Shown here: in pieces, positions 28,341-46,771 of the stretch
Numbering within the stretch: position 1 is the stretch's first letter
How the letters are laid out: every line of letters starts with the position of its first letter
From: Acidobacteriota bacterium
Lineage (GTDB): Bacteria > Acidobacteriota > Terriglobia > Terriglobales > Acidobacteriaceae
Length of the DNA stretch: 48,691 bases
Direction of reading: 5' to 3'
Assembly: GCA_021779935.1 (NCBI GenBank)
Contig: JAJXZT010000066.1
Coordinates: 1-48,691, forward strand
Made by a program: the position numbers and the translations under genes
The notes under the pieces: model-generated
Database searches by the model: none
What the model was told of the DNA's origin: nothing
What the model saw: the letters and a program-made list of their open reading frames with translations, nothing else

Positions 28341-28433
28341 GGAGAGGTGGCCGAGTGGCTGAAGGCGGCGGTTTGCTAAACCGTTATACGGTCAAAAGCT
28401 GTATCGGGGGTTCGAATCCCCCCCTCTCCGCCA
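28341..28433 (+). tRNA. tRNA-Ser (anticodon GCU), with encoded CCA
   Basis: The acceptor arms ggagagg (28341-28347) and cctctcc (28423-28429) pair fully. The anticodon loop tttgctaaa puts GCT at 28375-28377. The long variable arm (tacggtcaaaagctgta) marks a class II serine tRNA, and the T loop is ggttcgaatcc. CCA is encoded at 28431-28433. Everything to its right differs in character from the core genes, so it is a plausible integration boundary. Confidence 0.97.
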
Positions 28434-29833: not shown

Positions 29834-29862
29834 AATTGCGTGTTCTGGAACAGGTGGCTCAA

Positions 29863-30423
29863 ATGACTGGCGACAGGGATTGGTATGTAGGGGAAAGCAC
29901 CAAACGAGGATTCGACACTCCTCGCTGTCCATTCGCCTCCGTTGATCGATGCCCTCGGTACTATCAAAGTCTTTCGTTGTTGGGCGAGACGGGCAGCACC
30001 AAGCTCTCAAATAAGGAAGACAAGCGACTACTTAAAAGGTGGCGCAAGTCGGACTTGTGGCCCCGCACCGCAGAACAAGAAACGGCAGTGTTCAGTTCGA
30101 ATGGGACGCCCTACCTGTTTGCGAAATTCTGTCCTGAGGTTCTCTTCGAAAGGTTTGGTTGGTTCGCTACATCCCTTGCTGCTTATCCAGATGAAGTGGA
30201 TCGGTCTATGGCACATCGAACGCTCGGAAATTCGAACACTGGAGCGGACGATTGGCGATGGGCTTGGTGGCAAATGACGCCCATGCACTTTTCTGATTGC
30301 CCGATATACTCACCACTCTCACACCCAGTTCAGCAGTCTGGATCGGAAATACTTGGAATGAAGCCGGGCATTTGGGGATTCAGCGTTGACCTCAAAGCAC
30401 TTTGGCGTTGGCTAAGGAAATGA
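29863..30423 (+). CDS. Cysteine-containing protein coupled to the GHKL nuclease gene
   Basis: This 186-residue protein (from the ATG at 29863; TTG at 29836 is also possible) has paired cysteines in CPFASVDRCPRYYQ and later single ones in KFCPEVL and DCPIYSPL, a layout that could bind zinc. It is rich in Trp and aromatic residues near the C terminus (WRWAWWQMTPMHF). I do not recognise a named domain. Its stop codon is one base before the ATG of the GHKL-nuclease gene, so the two are almost certainly translated together and work together. It may be a target-sensing or regulatory partner; that is inference. Confidence 0.72.
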   Translation: MTGDRDWYVGESTKRGFDTPRCPFASVDRCPRYYQSLSLLGETGSTKLSNKEDKRLLKRWRKSDLWPRTAEQETAVFSSNGTPYLFAKFCPEVLFERFGWFATSLAAYPDEVDRSMAHRTLGNSNTGADDWRWAWWQMTPMHFSDCPIYSPLSHPVQQSGSEILGMKPGIWGFSVDLKALWRWLRK

Positions 30424-30424
30424 A

Positions 30425-32410
30425 ATGAAACGAGTCGCTGTATCTGTGCAGAATGATTATTTGGAACGGATGTCGAAGACACGTCCGATCAATGCTGTAG
30501 CTGAACTCGTTTGGAACTCCCTTGATGCTGACGCCGACCTTGTAAAGGTAAAGCTCGTGGAAAACGACATGGGCGGCTTAGAAAAACTTACCGTCAGCGA
30601 TAACGGAAACGGTTTAGAGTACGCCCTCGCTGAACAGGCTTTTGGCAGTCTCGGTGGTTCGTTGAAAAGAGCCGAACAAAAGTCTCGCCGAAAGAAACGC
30701 TTCCTTCATGGTAGACAGGGCAAGGGTAGGTTTAGTGCATTTGCGCTCGGTCAGACGGTGGAATGGAACTCGAAATTCAAGGCAAATGGAGCCTGCTCGA
30801 AATTTTCCGTCCTTGGCAAAAGAGACTCGCTAGGAACTTTTGAAATTGACGACTGCGAGTCAGCGTCCTCAACGAAGCCGGGCATGTCGGTCGTGGTTTC
30901 TGATTTCGACCGCAACTTTCCTTCATTATTGGGCGATGGCGCTGTCCAGACTCTCACAGAGCAGTTTGCCTTATATCTCGCTCAGTATCGTGATGTCGTG
31001 ATCGAGTACGACGGCAAGGTGCTCGATCCATTCTCGATTGTGCAGCACTCGGCGGATTATCCATACACGATTGCTAGAAAGGATGCGCCGGGGGACATTC
31101 ATGTCGTGCTTACTGTTGTGGAATGGAAGGTTGAGACCGAGCGCATCATGTACTTCTGCGATGCTGAAGGATTAACACTGAAGCAGATTTCTCCGGGTCG
31201 AGTTCATGCGCCGGGTTTCTGGTTTACTGCTTACCTTAAATCCGCTTATTTCCGTGAATTGGAACAGAACGGGACAATTGATCTCGACGAGTTGAACCCC
31301 GATCTCGGCAACGTCGTTGAGGTCGCCAGAGTCCGCCTGAGAGATCACTTTAGAAAGCGTGCTGCCGAAACTGCGGTGAACGTAGTTGAAGAGTGGAAGA
31401 AGGCAAAGGTTTATCCGTACGAAGCCGAGCCTCGGAACATACTTGAGCAAACCGAACGTCAGGTCTTCGATGTGGTTGCGTTGAACCTGAATTCGTATTC
31501 TCCCGAATTTGAAAAATCCGATCCGGATACAAAGAAGCTGGTATTGAAGCTCCTCAAGACTGTGCTCGGAACGAATCCTCCCGAGTTGCAGCAGATTCTC
31601 GCAAGTGTTATTGACCTTCCCGATGACAAGCAGAAAGACCTCGCTGAATTGCTGAGCAAGACGACTCTGCAAGCCGTCATCAACGCAGCGAAGGTGGTTA
31701 CCAGCAGGTTGGATTTCCTGAAGGGGATCGAACATCTCATTTTCGATCCGGAAATGAAAGAGCGCCTGCTAGAACGAAAACAGCTTCATCGAATTCTCGC
31801 CGCTGAGCCGTGGATTTTCGGGGAGCATTACCACATTGCGGTAGATGACGAATCCCTGACCAACTTGCTGAAAAAGCATTTGGAGTTGAGCAAGAGGGAG
31901 GTCGATGTTTACGAGCCCGTCCTTAGGGAGGGTGGCAGAGAGGGGATCGTGGATTTAATGCTCTCGAAAATCGTGCCTCTTCCTCGTGGTGATGAACGAG
32001 AGCACTTAGTAATCGAACTCAAGCGCCCCTCTCAGAAAATCGATGCTGAGGTCGCCCAACAAATTAAGAGTTACGCAATGGCGGTTGTCGGTGACGAGAG
32101 GTTCAAGAACACAAAGACGAGATGGGTGTTTTGGGCAATTTCAAATGACCTTACGGCGGAGGTGCGAGAAGAAGCAAGCCAGCGGGACAGACCCGAAGGC
32201 ATTCTCTTCCAGAGCAAGACGGGCGACGTAACCGTGTGGGTGAAGACATGGGCCGAAGTGCTTCAGGAGTGCGAGGGAAGGATGAATTTTTACCGAAGGC
32301 AATTGGAATATACCGCCTCGCAAGCCTCCGGACTCGCTCATCTCAGGGCTACATACGAGAAGTACTTGCCCGACGCCGCTAAAGCATCGAGCACCACTGG
32401 TTCTACGTAG
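30425..32410 (+). CDS. GHKL ATPase fused to a PD-(D/E)xK nuclease domain
   Basis: This 661-residue protein has a Hsp90/MutL-type GHKL ATPase at its N terminus: N-box ELVWNSLDAD at residues 27-36, DNGNG at 59-63, and the lid GRQGKGRFSAFALG at 96-109. The C-terminal region (about 440-630) looks like the Shedu/DUF4263 branch of PD-(D/E)xK nucleases, with Asp510 in GIVDLML, Glu531 and Lys533 in VIELKRP, and a following QQIKSYAMAV helix. The pairing of an ATP-gated clamp with a nuclease suggests an anti-invader role. It starts one base after the preceding Cys-rich gene. Function is inferred from domains only. Confidence 0.85.
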   Translation: MKRVAVSVQNDYLERMSKTRPINAVAELVWNSLDADADLVKVKLVENDMGGLEKLTVSDNGNGLEYALAEQAFGSLGGSLKRAEQKSRRKKRFLHGRQGKGRFSAFALGQTVEWNSKFKANGACSKFSVLGKRDSLGTFEIDDCESASSTKPGMSVVVSDFDRNFPSLLGDGAVQTLTEQFALYLAQYRDVVIEYDGKVLDPFSIVQHSADYPYTIARKDAPGDIHVVLTVVEWKVETERIMYFCDAEGLTLKQISPGRVHAPGFWFTAYLKSAYFRELEQNGTIDLDELNPDLGNVVEVARVRLRDHFRKRAAETAVNVVEEWKKAKVYPYEAEPRNILEQTERQVFDVVALNLNSYSPEFEKSDPDTKKLVLKLLKTVLGTNPPELQQILASVIDLPDDKQKDLAELLSKTTLQAVINAAKVVTSRLDFLKGIEHLIFDPEMKERLLERKQLHRILAAEPWIFGEHYHIAVDDESLTNLLKKHLELSKREVDVYEPVLREGGREGIVDLMLSKIVPLPRGDEREHLVIELKRPSQKIDAEVAQQIKSYAMAVVGDERFKNTKTRWVFWAISNDLTAEVREEASQRDRPEGILFQSKTGDVTVWVKTWAEVLQECEGRMNFYRRQLEYTASQASGLAHLRATYEKYLPDAAKASSTTGST

Positions 32411-32428: not shown

Positions 32429-32917
32429 ATGGATGTCGATAATTCGTCGGGGCTTATACAGGATTTCGAGTCAGCATTGCAATCGCTCGGATTGAGATGT
32501 GCGATTCGCCACGAGCATCAGCCTGCCCCGCACAAAGGAAAGGCACTACCAGCCGGGTTATGTGCGGTTTACGTTTTCACACTCTCCTCCACGTATGGCG
32601 CAAAGACGCAGGCCGGAGCGAACCGTGCTCTCAAGGTGGGCAAGGCGGGGATCAATTGCAGTGCCCGGTTTCAGTCGCAGCATTACAGTCCAAAAGCTGC
32701 TCCAAGTACGCTTGCCGCCACGCTGCTGAAGACGAGAGTTCTTTGGCCCTACATCGGCATAAAGTCGCTCGACGAGCTTATTGTTCGTAGCTGGATCGAG
32801 CAAAACACCGACCGTGACAACTTCCTGATACGTGCGGAAGACGGGCACTTGCTCGGCAAACTGGAAACCTATTTGAAGGCAATGCTCGGCCCAGTCTTCG
32901 AGGGCGGCACGGAATAG
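32429..32917 (+). CDS. GIY-YIG-like nuclease domain protein
   Basis: This 162-residue protein has a GIY-YIG-like core. AVYVF near residue 46 stands for the GIY strand, LKVGKAG at 68-74 for the YIG strand, ARF with Arg80 for the catalytic arginine, and KLETYL near 135 offers the metal-binding glutamate. A GxxAR-like QHYSP follows. The fold is plausible but the motifs are divergent, so nuclease activity is uncertain. An upstream ggag precedes the ATG by a suitable distance. It sits 18 bases after the GHKL-nuclease gene and 70 before the helicase, in the same direction. Confidence 0.68.
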   Translation: MDVDNSSGLIQDFESALQSLGLRCAIRHEHQPAPHKGKALPAGLCAVYVFTLSSTYGAKTQAGANRALKVGKAGINCSARFQSQHYSPKAAPSTLAATLLKTRVLWPYIGIKSLDELIVRSWIEQNTDRDNFLIRAEDGHLLGKLETYLKAMLGPVFEGGTE

Positions 32918-32987: not shown

Positions 32988-35900
32988 TTGCCAAGAATCT
33001 TCGACAATATCGACCTCCGCCTTCATCCGGCTCTAACTGACACTCTGAAGATTTCCGAAAGAGCCGATTTTTGCGTTGGCTATTTCAATCTGCGTGGATG
33101 GAAGCTTGTCGATGAATTCATCGAAGCATGGTCAGGCGGTGAAGGTTCGTGCTGTCGCCTGATCGTCGGGATGACACTGTTGCCGCAAGAGGAACTGCGT
33201 CGGGCGTTCAGTCTCGCATCATTGCCTGACGGACTGGATGCCCAAACCGCACAGCAACTTCGCAAACGGGCAGCCGAAGAGTTCCGGGCTCAACTCGCAT
33301 TGGGCGCACCGAACAACTCCGACGAAGCTGGACTTCGCCGCCTGAGTGCGCAACTGAAGGCGAAGAAGCTGGTGGTAAAGCTCTTCTTGCACTATCCCTT
33401 ACACGCCAAGCTATATCTGATCCATCGAACCGATCCCAACAATCCGGCAACAGGTTTTCTTGGCAGCAGCAATTTGACGTTTCCCGGCTTGTCGAAACAG
33501 GGCGAATTGAACGTTGATGTTCTGGATCAGGACGCCTGCACGAAACTTCAGAAATGGTTCGAGGATCGCTGGACAGATCAGTGGTGCATCGACATCTCGA
33601 ACGAACTGATTCAGATCATCGACGGCAGTTGGGCACGAGAGGAGCCCCTTCCGCCTTATCACATTTATCTCAAGATGGCATACCACCTGTCGCAAGAGGC
33701 GCGGGCAGGGTTGTCGGAGTTTCACGTCCCTCGCGATTTCGGGAACAAGCTCCTCGGTTTCCAAACCGCTGCTGTCAAGATTGCCGCTCAATATTTGAAT
33801 AAGCGTGGTGGGGTGGTCATCGGTGATGTGGTTGGGCTGGGCAAAACTTTGATGGCAGTGGCGTTGGCCCGAATCTTCCAAGACGATCACGGAACCGAGA
33901 CTCTGATCATCTGCCCGAAGAATCTCGTTCCCATGTGGGACGACTACGTCCACCAGTACCGCATGGCAGCGAAGATCATTCCGCTCAGCACCGCCATCCG
34001 AGACCTGCCGGAGTTGCCCCGGTATCGTGTCGTGCTTATCGACGAAAGCCACAATCTACGCAACCGGGAAGGGCGACGGTTCAAGGTCATTCAGGAGTAC
34101 ATCGCAAAAAACACCAGCAAGTGCATCCTCCTGTCGGCTACCCCCTACAACAAGTCCTATATCGATCTGTCTTCGCAGTTGCAGTTGTTTGTTGCCGGGG
34201 ATCAAGACCTCGGAATCAGACCCGAACGGTACATCAAAGAGATCGGCGAAACCGAGTTCATCCGCCGTCATCAGGCACCAGTGCGGTCGCTTGCGGCATT
34301 CGAAAAGAGCGGCTATGCGGACGACTGGCGTGATCTGATGCGCCTCTATCTTATTCGCCGAACCCGAGGTTTCATCAAAGACAACTACGCCAAGTCGGAC
34401 GAAACCACCGGGAGAAAATACCTCACCTTCGACACAGGGGATCGGTTCTATTTCCCCGACCGCCTCCCGAAGACGGTGAAGTTCGACTTCAACGAGAAAG
34501 ACCCGAACGACCCCTATGCTCGGCTCTATTCGAACGGAGTCGTGAATGCAGTTAACGGGCTGACGCTGCCTCGATATGGGCTCGGTAACTACATCGCACC
34601 TTCGCCGCACGATCCACCAACCGACGCCGAGGCGAAGGAATTGGCAAAGCTGTCTCGTGCTGGCAAGCGGCTGATGGGATTCTGCCGGACAAACCTCTTC
34701 AAGAGACTGGAGAGCGGAGGCCCCGCATTCATCCAATCTTTGGAGCGGCACGCTCTCCGGAATTTTGTCTATCTCCACGCTATCGAGAATGGGCTGCCGA
34801 TCCCTATCGGAACCCAAGGCGCTGAGCTTCTGGATGCGAAAGTCGGCGACCGAGACATCGACGACCTCCTCACGGAAGCGGATGACGATCAGGAGAACGG
34901 TGGTGATGTCAACGGTACTGCGGCGGCATTCCTGCGAGATGAGAAGGATTTCCGCAAGCGTGCGCAAGAGGTTTACGAACGGTATTCCACAGAGCTAAAG
35001 AAGCGATTCAAATGGCTTCGTCCTGCCCTCTTCATTTCAGCCTTAAAGCAGGATTTGCTTGACGACTCTAACTCTCTCATCAAGGTTATCAACAAGTGCG
35101 GTGCATGGGACGCAGCCAAAGACGCCAAGCTCAACGCTCTGGAGAAGCTGCTCCACCAGAAGTACGCCGACCAGAAGGTGCTCATCTTCACGCAGTTCGC
35201 CGACACAGCCAATTATCTGAGCGATCAACTGCAACGACGGAAGATCGATCATCTCGAAGGCGTGACTGGAGATTCGGAGAATCCGACCGCAGTGGCATGG
35301 CGCTTCAGTCCCGAGAGCAACAAGAAGAGAGATTCGGTCAAGCCGGATGACGAAGTACGGGTGCTGATCGCAACCGACGTGCTCAGCGAGGGGCAGAACC
35401 TTCAGGACTGTCACGTCATCGTGAACTACGACCTGCCATGGGCGATCATCCGACTGATTCAACGTGCCGGGCGTGTTGATCGAATTGGGCAGAAGGCAGA
35501 CACGATTTACTGCCATTCCTTCATGCCTGCGGACGGCATCGAGAGGATCATCAACCTTCGCCGCCGTGTGCGCCAGAGACTCCGGGAGAACAGTGAGGTC
35601 GTCGGCAGCGACGAGTTGTTCTTCGAAGATGAAACCAACGATCAGCGAGTTCTCGATCTCTACAACGAGAAGGCTGGCATCTTGGAAGAAGCCGACACCG
35701 AGGTCGATCTGGCGTCGTACGCTTATCAGATTTGGAAGAACGCCATCGACCAGAACCCGAAACTCCAGAAGCTCGTCGCCGAACTCCCCGAGGTCGTGTA
35801 CTCGACCAAGCCGCACACCCCGACGGCGGAAGAACCAGCGGGAGCTTTGGTGTACATGCGGACTTCGGAGGGAAATGATTCGTTGGCTTGGATCGATGGT

Positions 35901-36368
35901 GAAGGAAAGAGCGTGACGCAGTCGCAGCTTGCGATCTTGCGTGCCGCCGAGTGTGCGCCGGATACTCCCGCTCTACCACGGCAGGAGAAGCATCACGAAC
36001 TGGTCGAGGCCGGAGTCCGGCACATGGTGAAGGAAGAGAAGTCCGTAGGCGGTCAACTTGGGAGACCATCCGGCGCTCGATTTCGTGTATACGAAGCTCT
36101 CAAGACGTATCTCACGCATATCCAGAACACGCTCTTCGCAACGCAGGAATTGGCAAAGGCAGTTGATGAAATCTATCGGCACCCTCTCCAACAGAGTGCC
36201 GCCGATACCCTAAACCGCCAGTTACGCTCCGGCATCACCGACCAGCAGCTTGCCGATCTCGTCGTCGCCCTCCGTACTGAAGGTCGTCTCTGCCGGATCG
36301 AGGATGAAATCGAGACGCAGGAACCGCAGATTATTTGTTCGCTTGGATTATCGTCGCAGGGGAGTTAA
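32988..36368 (+). CDS. PLD-like nuclease fused to SNF2 helicase
   Basis: This 1126-residue protein begins with a phospholipase D-like domain (His139 and Lys141 in HAKLYLI, GSSN at 159-162; one HKD half, so probably a dimer-forming active site). It is followed by a SNF2 superfamily 2 motor: Walker A GLGKT at 283-287, DESH at 352-355, LLSATPYN, KVLIFTQFAD, and motif VI RAGRVDRIGQ at 826-835. Such proteins translocate on duplex DNA. The TTG start at 32988 is chosen because MPRIFDNI begins the conserved PLD region and nothing upstream fits. The methyltransferase gene starts nine bases after its stop. The closest known parallel is the DrmD-type helicase. Confidence 0.92.
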   Translation: MPRIFDNIDLRLHPALTDTLKISERADFCVGYFNLRGWKLVDEFIEAWSGGEGSCCRLIVGMTLLPQEELRRAFSLASLPDGLDAQTAQQLRKRAAEEFRAQLALGAPNNSDEAGLRRLSAQLKAKKLVVKLFLHYPLHAKLYLIHRTDPNNPATGFLGSSNLTFPGLSKQGELNVDVLDQDACTKLQKWFEDRWTDQWCIDISNELIQIIDGSWAREEPLPPYHIYLKMAYHLSQEARAGLSEFHVPRDFGNKLLGFQTAAVKIAAQYLNKRGGVVIGDVVGLGKTLMAVALARIFQDDHGTETLIICPKNLVPMWDDYVHQYRMAAKIIPLSTAIRDLPELPRYRVVLIDESHNLRNREGRRFKVIQEYIAKNTSKCILLSATPYNKSYIDLSSQLQLFVAGDQDLGIRPERYIKEIGETEFIRRHQAPVRSLAAFEKSGYADDWRDLMRLYLIRRTRGFIKDNYAKSDETTGRKYLTFDTGDRFYFPDRLPKTVKFDFNEKDPNDPYARLYSNGVVNAVNGLTLPRYGLGNYIAPSPHDPPTDAEAKELAKLSRAGKRLMGFCRTNLFKRLESGGPAFIQSLERHALRNFVYLHAIENGLPIPIGTQGAELLDAKVGDRDIDDLLTEADDDQENGGDVNGTAAAFLRDEKDFRKRAQEVYERYSTELKKRFKWLRPALFISALKQDLLDDSNSLIKVINKCGAWDAAKDAKLNALEKLLHQKYADQKVLIFTQFADTANYLSDQLQRRKIDHLEGVTGDSENPTAVAWRFSPESNKKRDSVKPDDEVRVLIATDVLSEGQNLQDCHVIVNYDLPWAIIRLIQRAGRVDRIGQKADTIYCHSFMPADGIERIINLRRRVRQRLRENSEVVGSDELFFEDETNDQRVLDLYNEKAGILEEADTEVDLASYAYQIWKNAIDQNPKLQKLVAELPEVVYSTKPHTPTAEEPAGALVYMRTSEGNDSLAWIDGEGKSVTQSQLAILRAAECAPDTPALPRQEKHHELVEAGVRHMVKEEKSVGGQLGRPSGARFRVYEALKTYLTHIQNTLFATQELAKAVDEIYRHPLQQSAADTLNRQLRSGITDQQLADLVVALRTEGRLCRIEDEIETQEPQIICSLGLSSQGS

Positions 36369-36377
36369 CCAACAAAG

Positions 36378-39300
36378 ATGCGCGCATCTTACTCAAACAT
36401 CCAGAGTCGGTTGAAAGCGTTCGATTTCAAGGGTCTGTTCACGCAAGAGTTGATGTGGAACAACTTTCCAACAAGAGAGTTGGAAGTGCCTGTAGATGGT
36501 GTGACGTATACGCTTCGTCCGGTGGCGCAGCGTGGTATGGCAGTCTTCGAGTGCTTGCCGCCCACCGACAAAGATTTCCCGAAGTATGCAGTTCGACGCA
36601 AGATCGACACGCAGGTTTCAAAATCAGCCAGAGAGCACATCATCGTCTTCCACGACCATGCCAAGAGCGTTCAGGTGTGGCAGTGGGTGAAGCGTGAGGC
36701 AGGCAAGCCGTCCGCCTGCCGTGAGCAAATCTTCTACACCGAGCAGACGGGTGATGCCCTCATTCAAAAGCTGCAAGCCATTGCGTTCAGCTTGGAGGAC
36801 GACGAGAACATCACCGAGACGGTCGGCCGGGTTGGCGCTGCCTTCGATGTTGAGAAAGTCACGAAAAAGTTCTACGAACTCTTCCAGAAAGAGCACGACA
36901 CTTTCCTGAAATTCGTCGATGGCATCCCCGACAAGGAACTGGAGAAGTGGTACGTCTCCGTGATGCTGAACCGCTTGATGTTCATCTACTTCATCCAGAA
37001 GAAGAAATTCCTCGGCGGCGATCAGCAGTACCTCAGCAACAAGCTGGCGGAAAGCAAGAAGCGGGGCAAGAATGAGTTCTATAAGACATTCCTCTGCCCA
37101 CTGTTCTTCGAGGGATTCGCAAAGCGCCCGGAGCAGCGCAGTGCAGCGACGAACCGCCTGCTCGGAGAGGTGCCATACCTCAATGGTGGACTGTTCCTGA
37201 AGCACCAGATCGAGGAACTGTACGGCAAGAACATAGACGCACCGGATAAGGCGTTCGAGCGCATCTTCGACTTCTTCGAACAGTACGACTGGCACTTGGA
37301 CGACCGCCCTACCCGGACTGGACGTGAGATCAACCCGGACGTTCTCGGATACGTCTTCGAAAAGTACATCAACCAGAAGCAAATGGGGGCGTACTACACC
37401 AAAGAGGACATCACCGAGTACATCAGCAAGAACACGATCATCCCGGCGCTCTTCGACATGGCAAGCAAGTCCTGCCGCATTGCATTCGAGGGTGAGCACT
37501 CCATTTGGCGGCTGCTGCAAAGCGATCCCGACCGCTTCATCTATGCGCCCATGCTCCGTGGGATGGAGAAGAAGCTGCCGGACTTCATCGCCGCCGGAAT
37601 TGCTAACGTTGCCAAGCGGGATCGATGGAATGAAGCCGCATCCGTGGAATATGCGCTGCCGACAGAAACGTGGCGTGAAGTCGTCGCCCGTCGCCAGCGG
37701 GTAGAGGAAGTACGAAAGACGTTGTTGTCGGGCGAGATCAAGTCCATCGCCGACCTCATCACCTACAACCTCGACATACGCCGCTTCGCCGAAGAGGTCA
37801 TCGCAACCTGCGAGGGGCCGGAACTTCTTCGGGCGTTCTACAAGGCGATTCGCACCATTTCCGTGCTCGACCCTGCGTGCGGCTCTGGTGCTTTCCTGTT
37901 CGCTGCCCTGAACGTCCTTGAGCGCCTGTACGACACCTGTCTCGTCAGGATGCAGGCGTTCGTCGATGATCTGGATCGCTCCGGCGAAAAGCACAGCCCG
38001 GAAAAGTTCAGAGACTTCCGGCAGACGCTTGAAGAAATGAACGACAAACAGCGTCACCCGAGCCCACGCTACTTCGTCCTGAAGTCGATCATCCTGAATA
38101 ACCTCTATGGCGTGGACATCATGGAGGAGGCGACCGAAATCTGCAAGCTACGGCTCTTTCTCAAGCTGGTCTCCCAAGTGGGCGCACACGAGAAGATCGA
38201 ACCGCTGCCCGACATCGATTTCAATATCCGTGCCGGAAACACTCTTGTCGGATATGCCACAGAAGCGGAAGTCGATAACGGTCTGAGCAGGCTTGGACAC
38301 AGCGACAAGAAAGCCGACATTTCTGAAAAAGCTGAAGCAGCGAGAAAGGCTTTCGAACACTTTAAGGAAAAACAGGTTGTCGGAGACACAGGGTCGGCTG
38401 AGGACATGCGCATATGGAAAGAGGCCGTCCAAAGCAGGCTTGACAAGCTCCGGGATGAGCTAGATGACTACCTCGCTGGCGATTACAACGTCAAGAAAGA
38501 CGATAAAGCACGATTTGTCTCATGGCGAAAGTCACACCAACCATTCCATTGGTTCGTCGAGTTCTACGGAATTATGCGAGCAGGTGGATTCAACGTGGTG
38601 GTAGGAAATCCGCCGTGGAGAGAGTACTCAGCGGTCAAGAAAACCTACACTGTGCGCAACTACAGTACGGAGAAAGCAGGCAATCTCTATGCGCTGTTCG
38701 TCGAGCGCAGCCTCGCTCTGCGTTCACCGCACGGTGCGTTTAGCTTCATCGTGCAGCTTCCGTTGGGGTGTTCTTCTCGGATGGATGTGACACGAACTGT
38801 GCTCCGGGCGAACAGCAGATACCTATATGTGGCAAGTTTCGGTGACCGTCCCGGTAAACTTTTCGAAGGCATGGAGAATTGCAGGGCGGTTATCGTCAAC
38901 TCGCTGTGGCGCTCTCCGAACGCTGAGAGGGTGTTACTGTTCGGTACAAGGTACCATCGGTGGCCGTCTGAAGCACGTCCTGAACTCTTCGCTACGCTGT
39001 CGTACGTTGCTAACCGATCCGGCAACCTTTTCCCTGACAGATTTCCGAAGACCTCTTCTGAAACAATGTCTTCGGTATTCAGATCGGTGGCGAAGCCGGA
39101 AATGCAGCCGCTAGGTTTGGCATTCAGCAACAGTGCGACCGACCACTTTGTTTTCTATCAAGAAGCCACACAATACTGGATCAAGGCAACATTAGGTTTG
39201 CCCTACTACCGTTACAACGGCAAAGTGGGAGCACCACCACACGGGCGCTACCTTTATTTTCACGACGCCTTGTCCGCTCAAGCGGTGTTTGCGATTCTGC

Positions 39301-39683
39301 ACAGCAGTTTGTTTTACGCTTATTTTGTTTGCTACGGGGACTGCTTTCACCTAAGCGACACTCTCGTTTCGGCGTTCCCAATTCCTCCGTCAGCCGTCAA
39401 GGATAAAAGACTGTCCCAACTTGGGCTTCAACTGCTTGAAGAGCTTGTGGCGAACGCCGAAACCAAAGAGATCACAACGAAGTCAAAAGACAAGATTTCT
39501 TACGCTGAGTTCTATGGATGGAAATCGAAGCCTCTGATCGACAAAATTGATGGTGCTCTTCTCTCCCTTTACGAAGTCGGCGGCGAAGAACTTGATGCTG
39601 TGGTTAACTTTGATGCGAAGTTCCGGCTGTCCCAAGTCGATGGCGAAGAACAGGAAACAGGCTCATCAGCAACAGCAGATTGA
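36378..39683 (+). CDS. Large N6-adenine DNA methyltransferase (Eco57I/PglX-like)
   Basis: This 1101-residue protein is a gamma-class N6-adenine methyltransferase. SAM motif I is DPACGSG at residues 498-504 and catalytic NPPW is at 744-747. The N-terminal third has the VMLNRLMFIYFIQKK and LNGGLFLKHQIEELYG segments and the GAYYTKEDITEYIS motif seen in Eco57I-type and PglX enzymes. The C-terminal third probably reads the target sequence. No separate nuclease motif is evident in it. It follows the PLD-SNF2 helicase by nine bases and overlaps the DprA-like gene by 44 bases, giving a tight functional unit. The most likely job is marking self DNA. Confidence 0.92.
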   Translation: MRASYSNIQSRLKAFDFKGLFTQELMWNNFPTRELEVPVDGVTYTLRPVAQRGMAVFECLPPTDKDFPKYAVRRKIDTQVSKSAREHIIVFHDHAKSVQVWQWVKREAGKPSACREQIFYTEQTGDALIQKLQAIAFSLEDDENITETVGRVGAAFDVEKVTKKFYELFQKEHDTFLKFVDGIPDKELEKWYVSVMLNRLMFIYFIQKKKFLGGDQQYLSNKLAESKKRGKNEFYKTFLCPLFFEGFAKRPEQRSAATNRLLGEVPYLNGGLFLKHQIEELYGKNIDAPDKAFERIFDFFEQYDWHLDDRPTRTGREINPDVLGYVFEKYINQKQMGAYYTKEDITEYISKNTIIPALFDMASKSCRIAFEGEHSIWRLLQSDPDRFIYAPMLRGMEKKLPDFIAAGIANVAKRDRWNEAASVEYALPTETWREVVARRQRVEEVRKTLLSGEIKSIADLITYNLDIRRFAEEVIATCEGPELLRAFYKAIRTISVLDPACGSGAFLFAALNVLERLYDTCLVRMQAFVDDLDRSGEKHSPEKFRDFRQTLEEMNDKQRHPSPRYFVLKSIILNNLYGVDIMEEATEICKLRLFLKLVSQVGAHEKIEPLPDIDFNIRAGNTLVGYATEAEVDNGLSRLGHSDKKADISEKAEAARKAFEHFKEKQVVGDTGSAEDMRIWKEAVQSRLDKLRDELDDYLAGDYNVKKDDKARFVSWRKSHQPFHWFVEFYGIMRAGGFNVVVGNPPWREYSAVKKTYTVRNYSTEKAGNLYALFVERSLALRSPHGAFSFIVQLPLGCSSRMDVTRTVLRANSRYLYVASFGDRPGKLFEGMENCRAVIVNSLWRSPNAERVLLFGTRYHRWPSEARPELFATLSYVANRSGNLFPDRFPKTSSETMSSVFRSVAKPEMQPLGLAFSNSATDHFVFYQEATQYWIKATLGLPYYRYNGKVGAPPHGRYLYFHDALSAQAVFAILHSSLFYAYFVCYGDCFHLSDTLVSAFPIPPSAVKDKRLSQLGLQLLEELVANAETKEITTKSKDKISYAEFYGWKSKPLIDKIDGALLSLYEVGGEELDAVVNFDAKFRLSQVDGEEQETGSSATAD

Positions 39684-40260
39684 GACGAAAGCCGGGCTGA
39701 TGTTCGGTCTCGGGCATGCCGACATAGTCGGCTTGAATTCACTCGGACTGATCTGTTCACGCAAGTGTCCCGGCGATGTGATTCTCAAGACCTATGACTT
39801 TGCCCGTTTGATGCAGACCTCCGGAACTGCCATCATCAGCGGCTTTCATTCTCCCATCGAAAAGGACTGCTTGCCGACCCTGCTGCGTGGCACCTGTCCG
39901 ATCATCATCGTTCAGGCGCATCGACTGAGCACTTCGAAGCTTCCGCTGGAATGGCAGAAAGGGATTGAGGAATGCAGGGTGCTTCTGATCTCACCATTCG
40001 GAGAGGCGCAGAAGAGGGTTACCGCCGAACTTGCGTCCGAGCGCAATCGGTTTGTCGCCGAAATCAGCGATGACGTTTTGATCCCGTACGCCCATCCCGG
40101 CAGCAAGACCGAAGCCCTCTCTAAGGAACTACTTTCGTCCGGCAAGAGGGTGTACACCTTCGAGAGCCCGTCCAACGCCGCTCTCACCTCAGCCGGAGCT
40201 ATTGCTGTGGGTTCGGAGTTCTTCTCAACTCCACAGGGAATCTCAGTCCAAATCAGGTGA
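39640..40260 (+). CDS. DprA/SMF-like Rossmann-fold protein
   Basis: This 206-residue protein has a Rossmann-type region resembling the DprA/SMF-LOG superfamily: TAIISGFHSPIEKDCLPTLL near residue 60, CPIIIVQAHRLST, ECRVLLISPFGEAQKRVT and GKRVYTFESPSNAAL. DprA proteins bind single-stranded DNA and load RecA, but many stand-alone members occur in defence loci. The ATG at 39640 overlaps the methyltransferase end by 44 bases; a start at 39700 is an alternative. It lacks the extra N-terminal SAM-like and C-terminal winged-helix domains of transformation DprA. It ends eight bases before the AAA+ gene. Confidence 0.75.
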   Translation: MAKNRKQAHQQQQIETKAGLMFGLGHADIVGLNSLGLICSRKCPGDVILKTYDFARLMQTSGTAIISGFHSPIEKDCLPTLLRGTCPIIIVQAHRLSTSKLPLEWQKGIEECRVLLISPFGEAQKRVTAELASERNRFVAEISDDVLIPYAHPGSKTEALSKELLSSGKRVYTFESPSNAALTSAGAIAVGSEFFSTPQGISVQIR

Positions 40261-40267
40261 GGCTAAT

Positions 40268-41470
40268 ATGCCGATACACGACGACCATTCCAAGAGCACG
40301 CAGCACACGGCAGCGGTCAGCAAGTCGGCCGGAAGCGGCCCTGCGAAAGCTGAACCTCCCCTTTGGTGGGCTGAACAAGTCAACCTGCTCGTTCAGCAGA
40401 AGAAGACTGCAAAAGCCTTGAAGGTGCTCAATCGGCTGCTGGATTACAACGTAGACAGGCACTACGTCCTACTCTACAAAGTGCGGCTGTTGCAGCGGTT
40501 GGGCAGGCTGAAAGAAGCAATTGCGTGGGTGTGTCTGGATGCCGAATTGAATCCTGACGATCCCAAGACTCTGGCTCTCAGAGACGAACTGATGGAGTTC
40601 TACCCGCATAGCCTCTTTGATTTTCGGGCCCCGAACGTTGACCTTCTTGCTGCGTTTCGGACGGTCGATGCCGAATGGCCCGATGTCGCCGGAATGAGCC
40701 AAGTCAAGCTCCAACTTCACACCGACATCATTCTCCCGATCCGGCATCCTGAGCGATTCAAGCGATTCAATGTCGGACTTCCAAATGGTGTCCTCTTCTA
40801 CGGGCCGCCGGGGTGCGGGAAGACGTTCCTTGCAAGGAAGATTGCTGAAAAAGTGAAGTATCAGTTCCGAGAGGTTCGGATGTCGGACGTTGGAAGCAAA
40901 TACATCCATGAGACCGGATCGAAACTGCGGGAGATTTTCGAGGAGGCGGAAGCTCATGCTCCGGCAATCCTCTTTCTCGACGAGATCGATTCATTGGCAT
41001 CCAGTCGTGATGGTCAGGATGCGGCCACATATCGTATCGAAGAGGTCAACGAACTGTTGAAGCTGGTCGATCAATGTAGCCAGCGGGGACTGCTGGTCAT
41101 TGGCGCTTGCAATTCGATAGAGCGGTTGGATTCGGCGATGGTGCGTCCCGGTCGTTTTGACAAGCGCATCTATATCGGGCCGCCAGATGAAGCAGCACGG
41201 TATTCGCTCTTCGAACTGTTCCTCAACAAGAGCCCACATGCAACGAATATCAATCTCTCGGCTCTTGCGGACGCCACAAATGGATACAGTAATGCCGATA
41301 TTGAAGAGGTAGTGAAAGAGGCGTCTCGTTTGGCAGGTGCGGAGGATGCCCCCAAGATCACCAAGCGGCATTTGGAAATGGCTTTGAAAGCCGTTCCTAG
41401 CTCACTGGTGAGTGCTGGAACATCGATTGCGGTTAAGAGAAGGGGTGTTGGGTTCCGACCAGCGGAGTGA
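40268..41470 (+). CDS. TPR-AAA+ ATPase
   Basis: This 400-residue protein has an N-terminal region of about 120 residues resembling TPR repeats (NLLVQQKKTAKALKVLNRLL, LKEAIAWVCLDAELNP). It is followed by a classical AAA domain of the Vps4/FtsH type: Walker A GPPGCGKT at 179-186, Walker B FLDEID with Asp238-Glu239, sensor 1 GACNSIERL, and RPGRFDKR as the arginine-finger region. The ATG at 40268 has gagg five bases upstream. It follows the DprA-like gene by seven bases and so belongs to the helicase-methyltransferase unit. A remodeller or assembly factor for that complex is plausible. Confidence 0.9.
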   Translation: MPIHDDHSKSTQHTAAVSKSAGSGPAKAEPPLWWAEQVNLLVQQKKTAKALKVLNRLLDYNVDRHYVLLYKVRLLQRLGRLKEAIAWVCLDAELNPDDPKTLALRDELMEFYPHSLFDFRAPNVDLLAAFRTVDAEWPDVAGMSQVKLQLHTDIILPIRHPERFKRFNVGLPNGVLFYGPPGCGKTFLARKIAEKVKYQFREVRMSDVGSKYIHETGSKLREIFEEAEAHAPAILFLDEIDSLASSRDGQDAATYRIEEVNELLKLVDQCSQRGLLVIGACNSIERLDSAMVRPGRFDKRIYIGPPDEAARYSLFELFLNKSPHATNINLSALADATNGYSNADIEEVVKEASRLAGAEDAPKITKRHLEMALKAVPSSLVSAGTSIAVKRRGVGFRPAE

Positions 41471-41517: not shown

Positions 41518-42918
41518 TCACAACCTTGAGGAGGCAACTTGCCCGAGCATGTCCGTCAGGGCATTCTCAAAATCACGGGAAACATCGACATATCCGGTCT
41601 TGGCATGGGCGATCTCATGCAACAGCGTGCCTGCAAAGTCCTGCACATTTTTAAGCTGATCTCGGAGGATGATGATGGTATTGGTCGCCTCTTCCCAAAG
41701 TCCCTGCGGCGTGTAGCCGGACATGATGTCGGGGCGCATCGTCTCCGAAATCTTGATCTGCTTGACCTTCCTAGGTATCCCTCCAACCAGACTCGCAATT
41801 TTCTCTCGTTGCTCAAACACCTCTTGCTCGGGCTTGGTTAGCTTTTCAGGATTGACGAATTTGAATTCAAAGCTCTGAGACCACTCCGACTGGAACACCC
41901 CGAGGTCTCGAACAGGGTTGCCCTTGAGATCGGTGATCCCCCGCAGCGAGTTCCTAATGTTCTCGGGAACAGAGACGATCTTGTAGCCGTCATCCTGCGC
42001 ATGATCGATGGTGGCGCGAAAACTCGTCAGATCGCCTGCGGTGACGAACACGACCCGCTTCGAGGCATTGAGAATCTGACACGCATGTACAGCAACGTCC
42101 GTCCATTTCACTTCGTCCCGATTGGTTCCTTGCTCGATTCTTTGCAGGTCTTCCGCCAGAGTCTCGGCAACTGCGTCGGCTTTGGATGCGAGAAGCATCT
42201 GTTTGACCCGGTCGCTGTATGCCGTCCTTCCTACGTTAGTCCTCTCACGGTTTAGTGCCTTACGCATCGTGGCGGTCAGAGACGTGATGTTGTAGGAGAA
42301 TGCGAAATTTTCTTCCTCTGCGACCAGCATGCCCGTGACGTAGATGCGAGATTTCCGTCCCTTGGTCGTTCCGAGGATTTGTCCGTAGGTCGTATCGTCC
42401 AGAACGGCTTGATTCGAGAACTTGAGGAAGAAGTTCTTTGCGGCAGCAATATCGGCATCCGACACGCCAGTCAGGATTACCTCTGTGCCTACCATGTTCG
42501 GATCGGATGCATCATTCACAACTGCGTGAAGTGTGACCACATCGGGGAACCCGTGCTTCGGCGTCTGCCCCAAAGTGATGTCCCCGTATTTCGAGCGGGT
42601 GAGAACATTCACCTTTCGACGGTTCAGGGTGGCGAGTGCATCTTTGAGCCCAACACCGAACTTACCGATCACCTTTGTCGGGTTCTTCAGTTTCTCCTGG
42701 TTCTCGTTTTGCGTCAGATGCTCGTACCGGAGACCACGACCAAAATCACGGATGCGCCAAGCACCTTTCTGATCTTTTGAAATCTCAACGTCCTTTGTGC
42801 TGGTGAGCACTTGCTCGTCCAGTGCATTGGCTATGATCTCCCGCACGGCATGGCAGGTCTCCCAACCTTCGAGAATCTTCTCGATGTTCAGATCGAATCT
42901 GCGTTCGTTGTTCGACAT
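41518..42918 (-). CDS. GHKL ATPase fused to an HExxH zinc metalloprotease domain
   Basis: This 466-residue protein has an N-terminal GHKL ATPase: REIIANALDE at residues 26-35 with Glu27, Asn31 and Asp34, DFGRG at 58-62, and lid GKFGVGLKDAL at 85-95. The C terminus ends with the zincin motif HEIAH at 434-438 and a likely third ligand Glu451 in DVSRDFENALTDMLG, a spacing like ImmA/IrrE-type proteases. The middle 250 residues have no family I can name. An ATP-dependent clamp gating a peptidase would be an unusual effector arrangement. It is the last gene of an eight-gene leftward operon and meets the AAA+ gene tail to tail, 47 bases apart. Confidence 0.82.
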   Translation of the reverse strand: MSNNERRFDLNIEKILEGWETCHAVREIIANALDEQVLTSTKDVEISKDQKGAWRIRDFGRGLRYEHLTQNENQEKLKNPTKVIGKFGVGLKDALATLNRRKVNVLTRSKYGDITLGQTPKHGFPDVVTLHAVVNDASDPNMVGTEVILTGVSDADIAAAKNFFLKFSNQAVLDDTTYGQILGTTKGRKSRIYVTGMLVAEEENFAFSYNITSLTATMRKALNRERTNVGRTAYSDRVKQMLLASKADAVAETLAEDLQRIEQGTNRDEVKWTDVAVHACQILNASKRVVFVTAGDLTSFRATIDHAQDDGYKIVSVPENIRNSLRGITDLKGNPVRDLGVFQSEWSQSFEFKFVNPEKLTKPEQEVFEQREKIASLVGGIPRKVKQIKISETMRPDIMSGYTPQGLWEEATNTIIILRDQLKNVQDFAGTLLHEIAHAKTGYVDVSRDFENALTDMLGQVASSRL

Positions 42919-42936
42919 TCTTCGCTCCGTTCGGGT

Positions 42937-43446
42937 TCACTCACCTTCATGAACAGTGCCGTCTTCGGCAATAGTGATCGTCACCCACTCGTAATGACCC
43001 TTGCTGACGACGCTCTCGACGCTGCGTTGAATCGTCTTCCGTTCTCGGCTTGTTGCTGTGCGGTCAAGCAGGAGCAAGTTCCTGAGCGAATCTGCCTTCA
43101 TGCCGTTGAAGACGATGTAATCCACCGGATGAAAGAGAACCTTTGCATCGTCGGGATTCAGCTTGCGAGGCGTGAACACGGGATCGATGCATTTGACCAG
43201 CTTGGCTGCCTGCTCCCGCCCTTTCTTCCGGGCGGCTTCCCGTAGCTCCTCCTCACGGTCGTCCAATCGTTCCTCAATTCGGTCGAGGCGATCTGATTCG
43301 TGGTCGAGGTTGTCCTTCCAATCACGCTTCGGTTTTGACCTCAGGAAGACCTTGCAGTCGCTAAGCCGGAAGATGTTTCCGGACTTCGGGCAAATGCCAA
43401 AGATGTTTCGCTGTACACGGTAGAATCCAACGAGTTCTTGCTTCAT
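42937..43446 (-). CDS. Holliday-junction-resolvase-like protein without the catalytic lysine
   Basis: This 169-residue protein resembles its neighbour at 43443 in layout: a Cys-containing start (GICPKSGNIFRLSDC), a charged coiled coil of about 50 residues (DRLDRIEERLDDREEELRE), and a nuclease-like core with HPVDYIVFNGM. Where the active paralogue has DIK, this one reads DRT (residues 128-130), so the lysine of the PD-(D/E)xK motif is missing. That suggests a structural or regulatory subunit. Its start overlaps the neighbour's stop by four bases, and the GHKL-zincin gene follows 18 bases later. Confidence 0.8.
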   Translation of the reverse strand: MKQELVGFYRVQRNIFGICPKSGNIFRLSDCKVFLRSKPKRDWKDNLDHESDRLDRIEERLDDREEELREAARKKGREQAAKLVKCIDPVFTPRKLNPDDAKVLFHPVDYIVFNGMKADSLRNLLLLDRTATSRERKTIQRSVESVVSKGHYEWVTITIAEDGTVHEGE

Positions 43447-43946
43447 CGCTTCGCCTCGTAGGTATCAAATTCAACCTTTTTCTGGTTCACCAGATTACGA
43501 ATGTCCTTTTGTCGGTGTGAGAGGGAGCCGTTTCCCGTCTTGATGTCGGCGAAGATGATTCTGGAGACCTTGCCGCTTTGACACAGCCCTTCGAAAATCA
43601 CGTAATCGATAGGATCGAACAGGGATCGGCAATCACTGCACTCGTAATGAAATGTGCTGAGAGACGGCGCAAGCCGTTCGAGGATGAATCCGATGTTGGT
43701 AGCCTTCGCCTGAGTCTCCGACGACCTTGAAATGTGTTTGCGCCTGTCCCGAAGATCGCTTCTTCGCTCCTGTAATTCCAGCTTGTACTGTTCGTAGACC
43801 TCCTGCCCTCTTTCGCTGAAATCGTTCATGTAGAACAACTCGCAATCACTCAGCAGAACAGACTCCTCGCAACATGGGCACTCGGCGTAGAAGCCGCCGT
43901 CCTCCAACGTACGAATGATTTCGTTCGCTAACCGGGCATCGTTCAT
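43443..43946 (-). CDS. Holliday-junction-resolvase-like endonuclease
   Basis: This 167-residue protein fits the Endonuc_Holl-type group (COG4741 in memory), distant relatives of archaeal Holliday junction resolvases. It has an N-terminal zinc-like CPCC (residues 23-26), a coiled-coil stretch (YKLELQERRSDLRDRRK), then RLAPSL and the nuclease core. Catalytic residues visible are Asp114 in DPIDYVIFEG, Asp134-Ile-Lys136 in FADIKTGNG, and Gln146 in SHRQKDI. It may cut branched or replicating DNA. It is followed by a four-base overlap with the inactive-looking paralogue, so a heteromer is plausible. Confidence 0.85.
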   Translation of the reverse strand: MNDARLANEIIRTLEDGGFYAECPCCEESVLLSDCELFYMNDFSERGQEVYEQYKLELQERRSDLRDRRKHISRSSETQAKATNIGFILERLAPSLSTFHYECSDCRSLFDPIDYVIFEGLCQSGKVSRIIFADIKTGNGSLSHRQKDIRNLVNQKKVEFDTYEAKR

Positions 43947-46373: not shown

Positions 46374-46771
46374 CCAAGGTGTGGGAGCGGCTGTACATCG
46401 GTAGTTTGCGAGACGCTGAAGCTCTTGCGGGTGCGAACCCGAACTGTGTCACGACGGTCATCACGCTCTGCGACCAGAAGGTGACCCGAAGGGCACAGGG
46501 CACCAACTACCTGCGCTTCCCGGTTGATGATGATCGACCGATTGATGCGGGGCAGTTCGACGCCATTATCGACGCCATCGGCGAAAACATCCGGTGGGGC
46601 ACCGTGCTGGTGCATTGCATTGGCGGATCAAGTCGCAGCCCGATTATGGCTGCCGCATGGATGCACGTGGTCGGGTACCGGAACATCGAGGATGCACTGA
46701 TCGAGATCGGTAAGCGCCGTTCGATTGAACCATCACCCAGTCTGCTGAAGAGCATCAAGGAGCTACTGTGA
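46370..46771 (+). CDS. Dual-specificity protein phosphatase-like protein
   Basis: This 133-residue protein fits the dual-specificity (cysteine-based) phosphatase fold: VITLCDQK, general-acid region PVDDDRP near residues 51-57, and P-loop VHCIGGSSRSP with Cys83 and Arg89 (Cx5R). Removal of phosphate from Ser/Thr/Tyr residues or another phosphoester is expected. It is small but complete for the family. It overlaps the zinc-ribbon gene by four bases and the serine recombinase gene by four bases, a coupling that is unusual for a phosphatase. Confidence 0.88.
   Translation: MTKVWERLYIGSLRDAEALAGANPNCVTTVITLCDQKVTRRAQGTNYLRFPVDDDRPIDAGQFDAIIDAIGENIRWGTVLVHCIGGSSRSPIMAAAWMHVVGYRNIEDALIEIGKRRSIEPSPSLLKSIKELL

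What the first reader, a model, noticed from the sequence alone, without database searches (positions are those of the whole stretch)
32988..41470. PLD-SNF2 helicase, giant adenine methyltransferase, DprA-like protein and TPR-AAA+ ATPase as one unit
Seen: four rightward genes with gaps of 9, -44 and 7 bases. They encode a one-polypeptide PLD-SNF2 motor (HxK, GSSN, GLGKT, DESH), a 1101-residue gamma-class methyltransferase (DPACGSG, NPPW), a Rossmann DprA-like protein and a TPR-AAA+ ATPase. Established: class 1 DISARM, as I recall it, uses a SNF2-type DrmD and an adenine methyltransferase DrmMI, with core DrmA, DrmB and DrmC. Inference: here the core is absent and a DprA-like protein plus a AAA+ remodeller replace it, so this may be a distinct anti-phage system with a helicase-nuclease restricting DNA that the methyltransferase has not marked.
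Basis: partly seen in the sequence, partly recalled or inferred. Interest (0 to 1): 0.78.

Follow-up and report, generated by a model that had tools for sequence, protein, structure and literature searches.

The report
Helicase-nuclease restriction system with DprA-like partner
These genes look like a widespread but little-described bacterial immune system that marks the cell's own DNA with a methyl group and cuts unmarked DNA with a motor-driven nuclease, often accompanied by a DprA-like protein; the fourth gene of the reported unit is a local add-on.

Summary
The four genes are real and placed as described, but not one conserved unit. The core is a pair: a PLD-nuclease/SNF2-motor protein (HEL) and an Eco57I-type adenine methyltransferase (MT). 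MT follows HEL within 2 kb in 74 of 80 related loci; five of the six misses are at contig ends. A DprA-like gene (DPR) is the only other frequent partner: 33 of 80 loci; 27 of 46 with complete HEL, MT and 3 kb downstream. It is absent from the plasmid copies and also occurs alone. The AAA+ gene recurs in 0 of 80.
MT residues 751-1040 are hypervariable and do not track HEL (r 0.09), while the MT core does (r 0.71), so MT probably supplies a swappable recognition domain for modification and restriction. A relative on Synechocystis plasmid pSYSX is, by elimination, M.Ssp6803IV, reported to make GA-m6A-GGC.
Best read as ATP-dependent restriction-modification working like Type III/ISP enzymes. It is not DISARM: DrmD cut-off not reached, DrmB-type domain absent genome-wide. 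DPR's role is unknown; a DNA-binding control subunit is likeliest. New variant of a known kind.

The parts
32988..36368 (+). HEL: N-terminal single-motif PLD (HKD-like) nuclease domain fused to a SNF2-type SF2 motor; predicted restriction subunit
36378..39683 (+). MT: Eco57I/PglX/LlaGI-like N6-adenine methyltransferase; N-terminal domain about 1-150 without a recognisable (D/E)xK nuclease motif; catalytic motifs DPACGSG and NPPW
38628..39497 (+). Hypervariable, presumed target-recognition region of MT, residues 751-1040, which does not track HEL
39640..40260 (+). DPR: DprA-family Rossmann protein (DprA core only), recurrent third gene
40268..41470 (+). AAA: CDC48/IetA-like AAA+ ATPase with weak TPR signal; local accessory gene, not part of the conserved system

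Best explanation
HEL and MT form an ATP-dependent restriction-modification system. MT recognises a short, probably asymmetric DNA site through its C-terminal recognition region and methylates an adenine on one strand of host DNA. On unmodified foreign DNA the same recognition region delivers HEL, whose SNF2 motor moves along the duplex; two HEL molecules meet and their single-motif PLD domains pair and cut both strands, the logic of Type III and Type ISP enzymes (that logic, and pairing of single-motif PLD nucleases, are recalled). The DprA-like protein most likely binds single-stranded DNA or DNA ends made during restriction and tunes or limits the reaction. The AAA+ gene is one of many interchangeable neighbours. 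Shown here: gene pairing, domain content, decoupled recognition region, recurrence of DPR. Inferred: complex formation, translocation, cutting, protection by methylation, the role of DPR. No experiment was run.
For: Pairing: MT within 2 kb downstream of HEL in 74 of 80 genome loci; of the 6 misses, L018, L059 and L066 end within 250 bases of HEL, L047 and L072 end 0.9 and 3.3 kb on, and L089 has a partial MT-like ORF upstream. Also 5 of 5 viral contigs with HEL at 50% identity or more. Co-evolution with a decoupled recognition region: over 48 loci HEL identity tracks the MT core (r 0.71, 0 of 2000 permutations as high) but not MT 751-1040 (r 0.09, 102 of 2000); window against nearest relative L028: HEL 85%, MT core 76%, recognition region 29%. 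Nuclease and methylation go together: the PLD residues are altered in only two ORFs, L008 and L032, and both have a broken MT (truncated to 285 aa; split 545+500). Fold: MT aligns with CamA (Z 15.8, rmsd 3.6, 304 aligned), PglX (12.9, 7.3, 535) and Type ISP LlaGI (11.7, 5.5, 428). Target: M.Ssp6803IV is encoded on pSYSX (PMC6604393, passage) and methylates GA-m6A-GGC (PMC7296061, passage); pSYSX has two annotated DNA methyltransferases, this family's SGL_RS01600 and a type I M gene. DPR in 27 of 46 usable loci, on the MT strand in 32 of 32.
Against: No activity of a HEL of this family was seen in the search listings and passages looked at (searches). The pSYSX assignment is by elimination from an annotation table, and the primary paper was not held. 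In the 31 loci with all three genes (L094 left out) HEL against whole MT is weak (r 0.19, 142 of 2000; over 71 loci r 0.65, 0 of 2000); I put this down to the recognition region but did not re-test that subset. An intact PLD site also occurs with broken MT ORFs (L015, L061; in L053 and L096 HEL is broken too), possibly assembly errors. Against DPR as a regular part: 19 of 46 usable loci have no DPR ORF; no plasmid record matches it although plasmids carry HEL and MT, and the 8 plasmid loci lack it; in the phylum survey 4 of 10 DPR genomes have no HEL or MT beside it (two of these near contig ends) and in a fifth, G235, HEL is on another contig; 2 of 4 viral DPR relatives, the distant ones, lack HEL and MT.
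Confidence: 0.75

Rival explanations
1. MT is an ordinary Type IIG enzyme (nuclease and methyltransferase in one chain, as PADLOC labels it) and HEL is a separate accessory helicase-nuclease.
For: MT matches the Type IIG model PDLC03628 over its whole length (950 bits); an alignment to DrdV (recalled as Type IIL) starts at residue 4 (Z 13.1, rmsd 11.6, 494 aligned).
Against: In 48 sequences the N-terminal domain shows no conserved (D/E)xK nuclease motif; conserved residues are instead P68, R73, K75, K82, E86, H87, W101, W103. HEL is nearly always near MT and tracks its core. The N-terminal domain was not modelled alone.
Confidence: 0.12
2. A degenerate or diverged DISARM (class 1) in which DprA-like and AAA+ proteins replaced DrmA, DrmB and DrmC.
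For: HEL has local similarity to DrmD (108 bits PADLOC, 129 bits NCBIfam) and MT to DrmMI (78 bits).
Against: Below the DrmD cut-off of 610 bits; no MZB/DUF1998 domain found in the genome; the AAA+ protein does not recur; other families score better for both proteins.
Confidence: 0.03
3. A BREX-like, non-cleaving exclusion system: MT works as PglX and HEL only remodels DNA.
For: MT resembles PglX in sequence (76 bits) and fold.
Against: PLD residues are intact in 100 of the 102 HEL ORFs that cover the region; no third large gene family recurs.
Confidence: 0.07
4. DPR is a guard that switches on the neighbouring interchangeable effector genes when restriction fails, as is proposed for DprA-type partners in ShosTA-like systems.
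For: DPR fold is near ShosA (Z 17.1); neighbours include Gabija, short-Argonaute-type TIR, SIR2 and HEC-01-like genes.
Against: The number of co-directional neighbour genes is the same with and without DPR (27 loci, mean 1.44; 19 loci, mean 1.42; P 0.57); no other neighbour family is in more than 8 of 89 loci.
Confidence: 0.1

Closest known systems
BREX-related Type-2 systems (methyltransferase, DUF499, HKD-SNF2 helicase, DUF3780)
   Same: Helicase with an N-terminal HKD/PLD nuclease plus an adenine methyltransferase; proposed restriction-modification logic (PMC12839542 and PMC7641849, passages)
   Different: No DUF499 found in this genome; MT is Eco57I-type with no DUF1156 hit (that COG1743 equals DUF1156 is recalled); HEL scores 155 bits against the 1100-bit cut-off of NCBI's PLD anti-phage helicase model (that this model stands for such systems is recalled)
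Type ISP (LlaGI, LlaBIII) and Type III restriction enzymes
   Same: Motor, methyltransferase and recognition domain act together (recalled); MT aligns to LlaGI from residue 150 (Z 11.7)
   Different: Two genes, a PLD nuclease with a SNF2 motor, and often a DprA-like gene
PbeABCD / CxC ABC-ATPase systems
   Same: HKD nuclease fused to an SF2 helicase, some with a DNA methylase (PMC10853773, passages)
   Different: PbeA match only 39.5 bits; no ABC ATPase or DndE among the 19 window ORFs scanned with Pfam
Class 1 DISARM
   Same: SNF2 helicase plus adenine methyltransferase
   Different: DrmB-type domain not found; DrmD cut-off not reached
DprA and the DprA-type proteins ShosA/PsyrA
   Same: DprA Rossmann core and the conserved RN motif; 51.5 bits to PsyrA
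   Different: Short stand-alone core; frequent partner is a restriction-like pair, not a phosphoribosyltransferase

Membership tests
Class 1 DISARM | DrmD helicase above the curated cut-off | tested here: not met
   128.7 bits against 610
Class 1 DISARM | Core gene DrmB (DUF1998/MZB domain) in the genome | tested here: not met
   PF09369 (MZB; its identity with DUF1998 is recalled): 0 matches in the own genome; controls ring in 8 of 14. The genome is 99% complete, in 72 contigs
Class 1 DISARM | DrmA and DrmC | not tested
   Not sought genome-wide; in the PADLOC scan of 9 window ORFs (best 25 rows shown) DrmA appears only as a 55-bit partial match of HEL to residues 475-629 of the model
BREX-related Type-2 (HKD-helicase, DUF499, COG1743 methyltransferase) | DUF499 ATPase | tested here: not met
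   PF04465: 0 matches in the own genome; controls ring in 1 of 14
BREX-related Type-2 (HKD-helicase, DUF499, COG1743 methyltransferase) | Helicase with N-terminal HKD/PLD nuclease | tested here: met
   PLDc_2 38 bits at residues 24-195, SNF2-rel_dom from 259
BREX-related Type-2 (HKD-helicase, DUF499, COG1743 methyltransferase) | COG1743/DUF1156 methyltransferase | tested here: not met
   Pfam gives Eco57I and MmeI_Mtase, no DUF1156
PADLOC C3a139 (HKD+Snf2) | Full-length match | tested here: inconclusive
   Best PADLOC model for HEL, 163.8 bits in 2 stretches, best 567-867; the diverged L094 helicase matches it over 6-918 with 249 bits; no cut-off is given
Type IIG restriction enzyme | Full-length family match | tested here: met
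   PDLC03628, 950 bits, residues 5-1085
Type IIG restriction enzyme | Nuclease active site in the same chain | tested here: inconclusive
   No conserved (D/E)xK in residues 11-125 of 48 sequences; domain not modelled alone
Type III / Type ISP logic | Restriction and modification share the methyltransferase's recognition domain | tested here: inconclusive
   Recognition region does not track HEL (r 0.09) while the MT core does (r 0.71); indirect
Type III / Type ISP logic | ATP-driven translocation and cutting between convergent sites | not testable with these tools
   Needs biochemistry
Gamma-class N6-adenine methyltransferase | Motifs DPACGSG and NPP(Y/W) | tested here: met
   D498, G502, S503, G504 and G743-P746 invariant in 48 of 48 aligned sequences; 747 is Y in 43 and W in 5
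DprA family | DprA Rossmann fold | tested here: met
   AlphaFold pLDDT 92.7; HpDprA Z 19.0, rmsd 3.0, 188 aligned
DprA equivalog (transformation protein) | Curated score | tested here: not met
   TIGR00732 36.2 bits against 191.15
Hma | HmaA, HmaB (m5C methyltransferase) and HmaC | tested here: inconclusive
   HmaA 82 bits for HEL; only 25 of 37 hits were shown for MT; no HmaC among the 8 hits of AAA
IetAS | IetA ATPase score | tested here: not met
   NF042959 137 bits against 510

The most novel reading that the evidence does not exclude
A distinct class of restriction system with a DprA-family protein as a regular control subunit: it reads single-stranded DNA or ends made by the SNF2-PLD motor and decides whether degradation starts or how far it proceeds, linking a protein known from DNA uptake to restriction.
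Probability: 0.25. Interest if true: 0.75.

Novelty: new variant of a known kind. Interest (0 to 1): 0.52.

Why it matters
If right, a restriction system found in many phyla, on plasmids and in viral contigs has been filed piecemeal (methyltransferase as Type IIG or 'DNA methyltransferase', helicase as 'helicase-related protein') and its restriction partner overlooked. The swappable recognition region offers a family of new m6A specificities readable from methylomes. The recurrent DprA-like gene poses a testable question about why a DNA-uptake protein fold travels with restriction. The Synechocystis copy gives an existing laboratory strain in which to test it.

Tried and rejected
AAA+ as component: rejected (0 of 80 loci; among 396 genomes searched at E 1e-40 no match other than the window's own spans the first 110 residues). 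Upstream genes (HATPase 30425-32410, ORFs 29836-30423 and 32429-32917) as part of the unit: no relatives in the 88 related loci searched; of the other neighbours only the resolvase (4 loci) and the phosphoesterase (1 locus) have relatives there. Mobile-element boundary: no second copy of the tRNA-Ser 3' end in the window. DPR as switch for cargo genes: no difference in cargo number. MT N-terminus as an active nuclease: no motif. Papers: Hagemann 2018 on the Synechocystis methylome is not held; I recall from its abstract that slr6050 is named as the probable M.Ssp6803IV gene and that M.Ssp6803IV was essential, which would fit an active restriction partner; neither was seen here, and a search for slr6050 gave no paper. 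Searches that showed no description of this gene pair: (open-licence papers; listings, and passages of the papers named in the report). One search gave no papers. Families absent from the VIA-align lists are not taken as excluded.

Rows dropped before counts: searches use only genome loci with complete HEL and MT ORFs and at least 3 kb downstream (46 of 80); L014, whose DPR lies upstream by tblastn, counts there as without DPR, so 27 of 46 is slightly low. One search uses 48 loci (window, plasmid and survey loci included) with MT of 1000 aa or more and above 1250 bits, out of 71 with complete HEL and MT. In one search L094 was left out for one set of correlations. L100 appears to be the same contig as L045 (same length and helicase score), so the 103 HEL ORFs and the 71 loci are not all independent; correlations treat loci as independent although they are related by descent. 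Viral loci L108/L112 and L109/L114 are the same contigs. Pfam and PADLOC scans of cargo genes covered 20 and 10 chosen proteins, not all.
Full report
WHAT IS THERE. The window is G000:C70:1-48691 of a 4.49 Mb, 72-contig genome. HEL has a PLD domain (residues 24-195) and a SNF2-type motor. MT has Eco57I and MmeI-type methyltransferase hits. DPR hits the DprA family. AAA is CDC48/IetA-like; its TPR signal is below Pfam's cut-off.

WHAT RECURS. By tblastn MT is found in 74 of 80 loci, within 2 kb downstream of HEL, DPR in 33 of 80 and AAA in 0 of 80. The six loci without an MT match are L018, L059 and L066 (contig ends within 250 bases), L047 and L072 (contig ends 0.9 and 3.3 kb on) and L089 (a partial MT-like ORF upstream). 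Clustering of all ORFs in these 80 loci, 8 plasmid loci and the window puts HEL in 89 of 89, MT in 84 and DPR in 31 loci; the next families are in 8. In genome loci with complete HEL and MT and at least 3 kb downstream, DPR is present in 27 of 46, and DPR is on the MT strand in all 32 loci where both are complete, window and survey loci included. L094, a diverged relative (helicase 472 bits), has the order DPR-MT-HEL. Among viral contigs, 5 hold HEL at 50% identity or more; MT is present in 5 of 5, and DPR in 4 of 5, the fifth being cut inside MT. Of the window's other neighbours only the resolvase (4 loci) and the phosphoesterase (1 locus) have relatives in the related loci.

RESULTS AGAINST DPR AS A REGULAR PART. 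No plasmid record matches DPR although plasmids carry HEL (25 records with 80% coverage) and MT (6 records), and the 8 plasmid loci lack it. In 396 genomes of the phylum HEL is in 14 (E 1e-60), DPR in 10 (E 1e-8), both in 5 (hypergeometric P 6e-6). In four of these five (G000, G217, G051, G021) the two lie within about 6 kb, in G021 both decayed; in G235 they are on different contigs. In a sixth genome, G312, DPR lies beside the diverged HEL and MT of L094. In the other four (G074, G088, G095, G188) no HEL or MT is in the stretch fetched; two of these lie near contig ends, and the neighbours identified are ordinary, such as glycosyltransferases or a peptidase. Of four viral DPR relatives two, the more distant, have no HEL or MT beside them. 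So the association is far above chance but DPR also exists outside this system.

AAA. At E 1e-40 AAA-domain matches occur in 102 of 396 genomes, but apart from the window's own gene none spans the first 110 residues of the query.

THE METHYLTRANSFERASE IS MODULAR. Mean pairwise identity of MT over 30 aligned sequences is 0.41-0.87 for the 50-residue blocks up to residue 750, 0.21-0.37 for 751-1050 and 0.50 for 1051-1100. For 48 loci, HEL identity tracks MT residues 1-640 (Mantel r 0.71, 0 of 2000) and not residues 751-1040 (r 0.09, 102 of 2000); the window and L028 share 85% in HEL, 76% in the MT core and 29% in the recognition region, L023 and L024 91, 87 and 30%; some pairs do share the region (L033/L027 75, 77 and 83%). 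The motor therefore goes with many recognition regions, which suggests that MT provides specificity for both activities. With whole MT, HEL-MT correlation is r 0.65 over 71 loci (0 of 2000) but only 0.19 (142 of 2000) in the 31 loci with DPR and without L094, where HEL-DPR is 0.66 (0 of 2000) and MT-DPR 0.33 (7 of 2000). I put the weak value down to the recognition region but did not re-test that subset.

NUCLEASE. Ten key residues (PLD H139, K141, S160, N162, E173 and motor residues, allowing T or S at 287) are intact in 99 of 103 HEL ORFs; one ORF is a fragment without the region, L107 has the PLD residues but is cut later, and two are altered: L008 and L032. Both have a broken MT (285 aa; 545+500 aa). 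An intact PLD site with a broken MT ORF is seen in L015 and L061; in L053 and L096 both genes are broken. The N-terminal domain of MT shows no conserved (D/E)xK in 48 sequences. The alignment to DrdV starts at MT residue 4 (rmsd 11.6), those to PglX and LlaGI at 158 and 150, so MT has an extra N-terminal domain; its fold alone was not tested. The MT model has mean pLDDT 80.2 and pTM 0.61.

A MEMBER WITH A REPORTED MOTIF. Synechocystis 6803 plasmid pSYSX carries HEL SGL_RS01585 and MT SGL_RS01600, 52% and 44% identical to the window's. A passage of PMC6604393 says that two of the strain's five methyltransferases, M.Ssp6803IV and M.Ssp6803V, are on pSYSX. Passages of PMC7296061 give GA-m6A-GGC for M.Ssp6803IV and assign M.Ssp6803V to a type I system. 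The pSYSX annotation lists two DNA methyltransferases, SGL_RS01600 and the type I gene SGL_RS19530 (the table may be incomplete). By elimination SGL_RS01600 is M.Ssp6803IV. The original paper was not available. An asymmetric site methylated on one strand fits enzymes that need two convergent sites; that step is inference from recalled knowledge of Type III and ISP enzymes.

DPR. The model (pLDDT 92.7) is closest to H. pylori DprA (Z 19.0) and S. pneumoniae DprA (18.6), then ShosA (17.1); R135 and N136 are invariant in 31 sequences and align with DprA's RN motif. DprA proteins are reported as antitoxins and proposed as phage-DNA sensors in related two-gene systems (PMC9122126, passage). Genes near the pair include complete Gabija in L049, GajA in L023, a short-Argonaute-type TIR gene directly after DPR in L028, SIR2 in L026 and HEC-01-like genes in L010 (chosen proteins only). 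Their number does not depend on DPR, so no coupling is shown.

NOT DISARM, NOT A NAMED SYSTEM THAT I COULD FIND. HEL falls well below the DrmD cut-off, MZB/DUF1998 and DUF499 were not found in the genome, and the closest described architectures, BREX-related Type-2 and Pbe, have components not found here (passages). No paper found describes this pair or triad (searches; open-licence papers only). PADLOC has MT as Type IIG and a distant HKD+Snf2 model, C3a139. The verdict is a new variant of ATP-dependent restriction-modification.

Noticed in passing
L109:8715-9905: In a viral contig an ORF between MT and DPR fuses the N-terminal domain of MT (profile 8-211, 125 bits) to what reads by eye like a sigma-factor region; the N-terminal domain may be a mobile docking module.
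   Followed up: partly
L049:17633-21404: A complete Gabija pair (GajA 695 bits, GajB 727 bits) sits between MT and DPR.
   Followed up: partly
L028:14467-17426: In the nearest relative a short-Argonaute-type TIR gene (406 bits) and a 513-aa gene without Pfam hit follow DPR, the place that the AAA gene holds in the window.
   Followed up: partly
window 30425-32410: HATPase_c_3 protein (661 aa) with a C-terminal stretch that may be a nuclease (VIELKRP, by eye), one base after ORF 29836-30423; perhaps a separate defence operon.
   Followed up: partly
window 41518-43946: Leftward HATPase-like protein (466 aa, weak) and two adjacent Endonuc_Holl proteins.
   Followed up: no
window 46768-47373: Serine resolvase (Pfam 151 bits) near the window's end; together with the tRNA-Ser at 28341-28433 it hints at an integrated island, but no second tRNA end was found.
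   Followed up: partly
L002, L004, L009: In three cyanobacterial plasmids a VapC-family toxin gene with a small upstream gene lies between HEL and MT.
   Followed up: no
L002:16924-19545: On pSYSX a multiubiquitin-E2-ThiF-DUF6527 gene set lies beside MT.
   Followed up: no
L008:9001-13209: Dolichospermum plasmid copy with decayed nuclease motif and truncated methyltransferase, a natural loss of both activities.
   Followed up: yes
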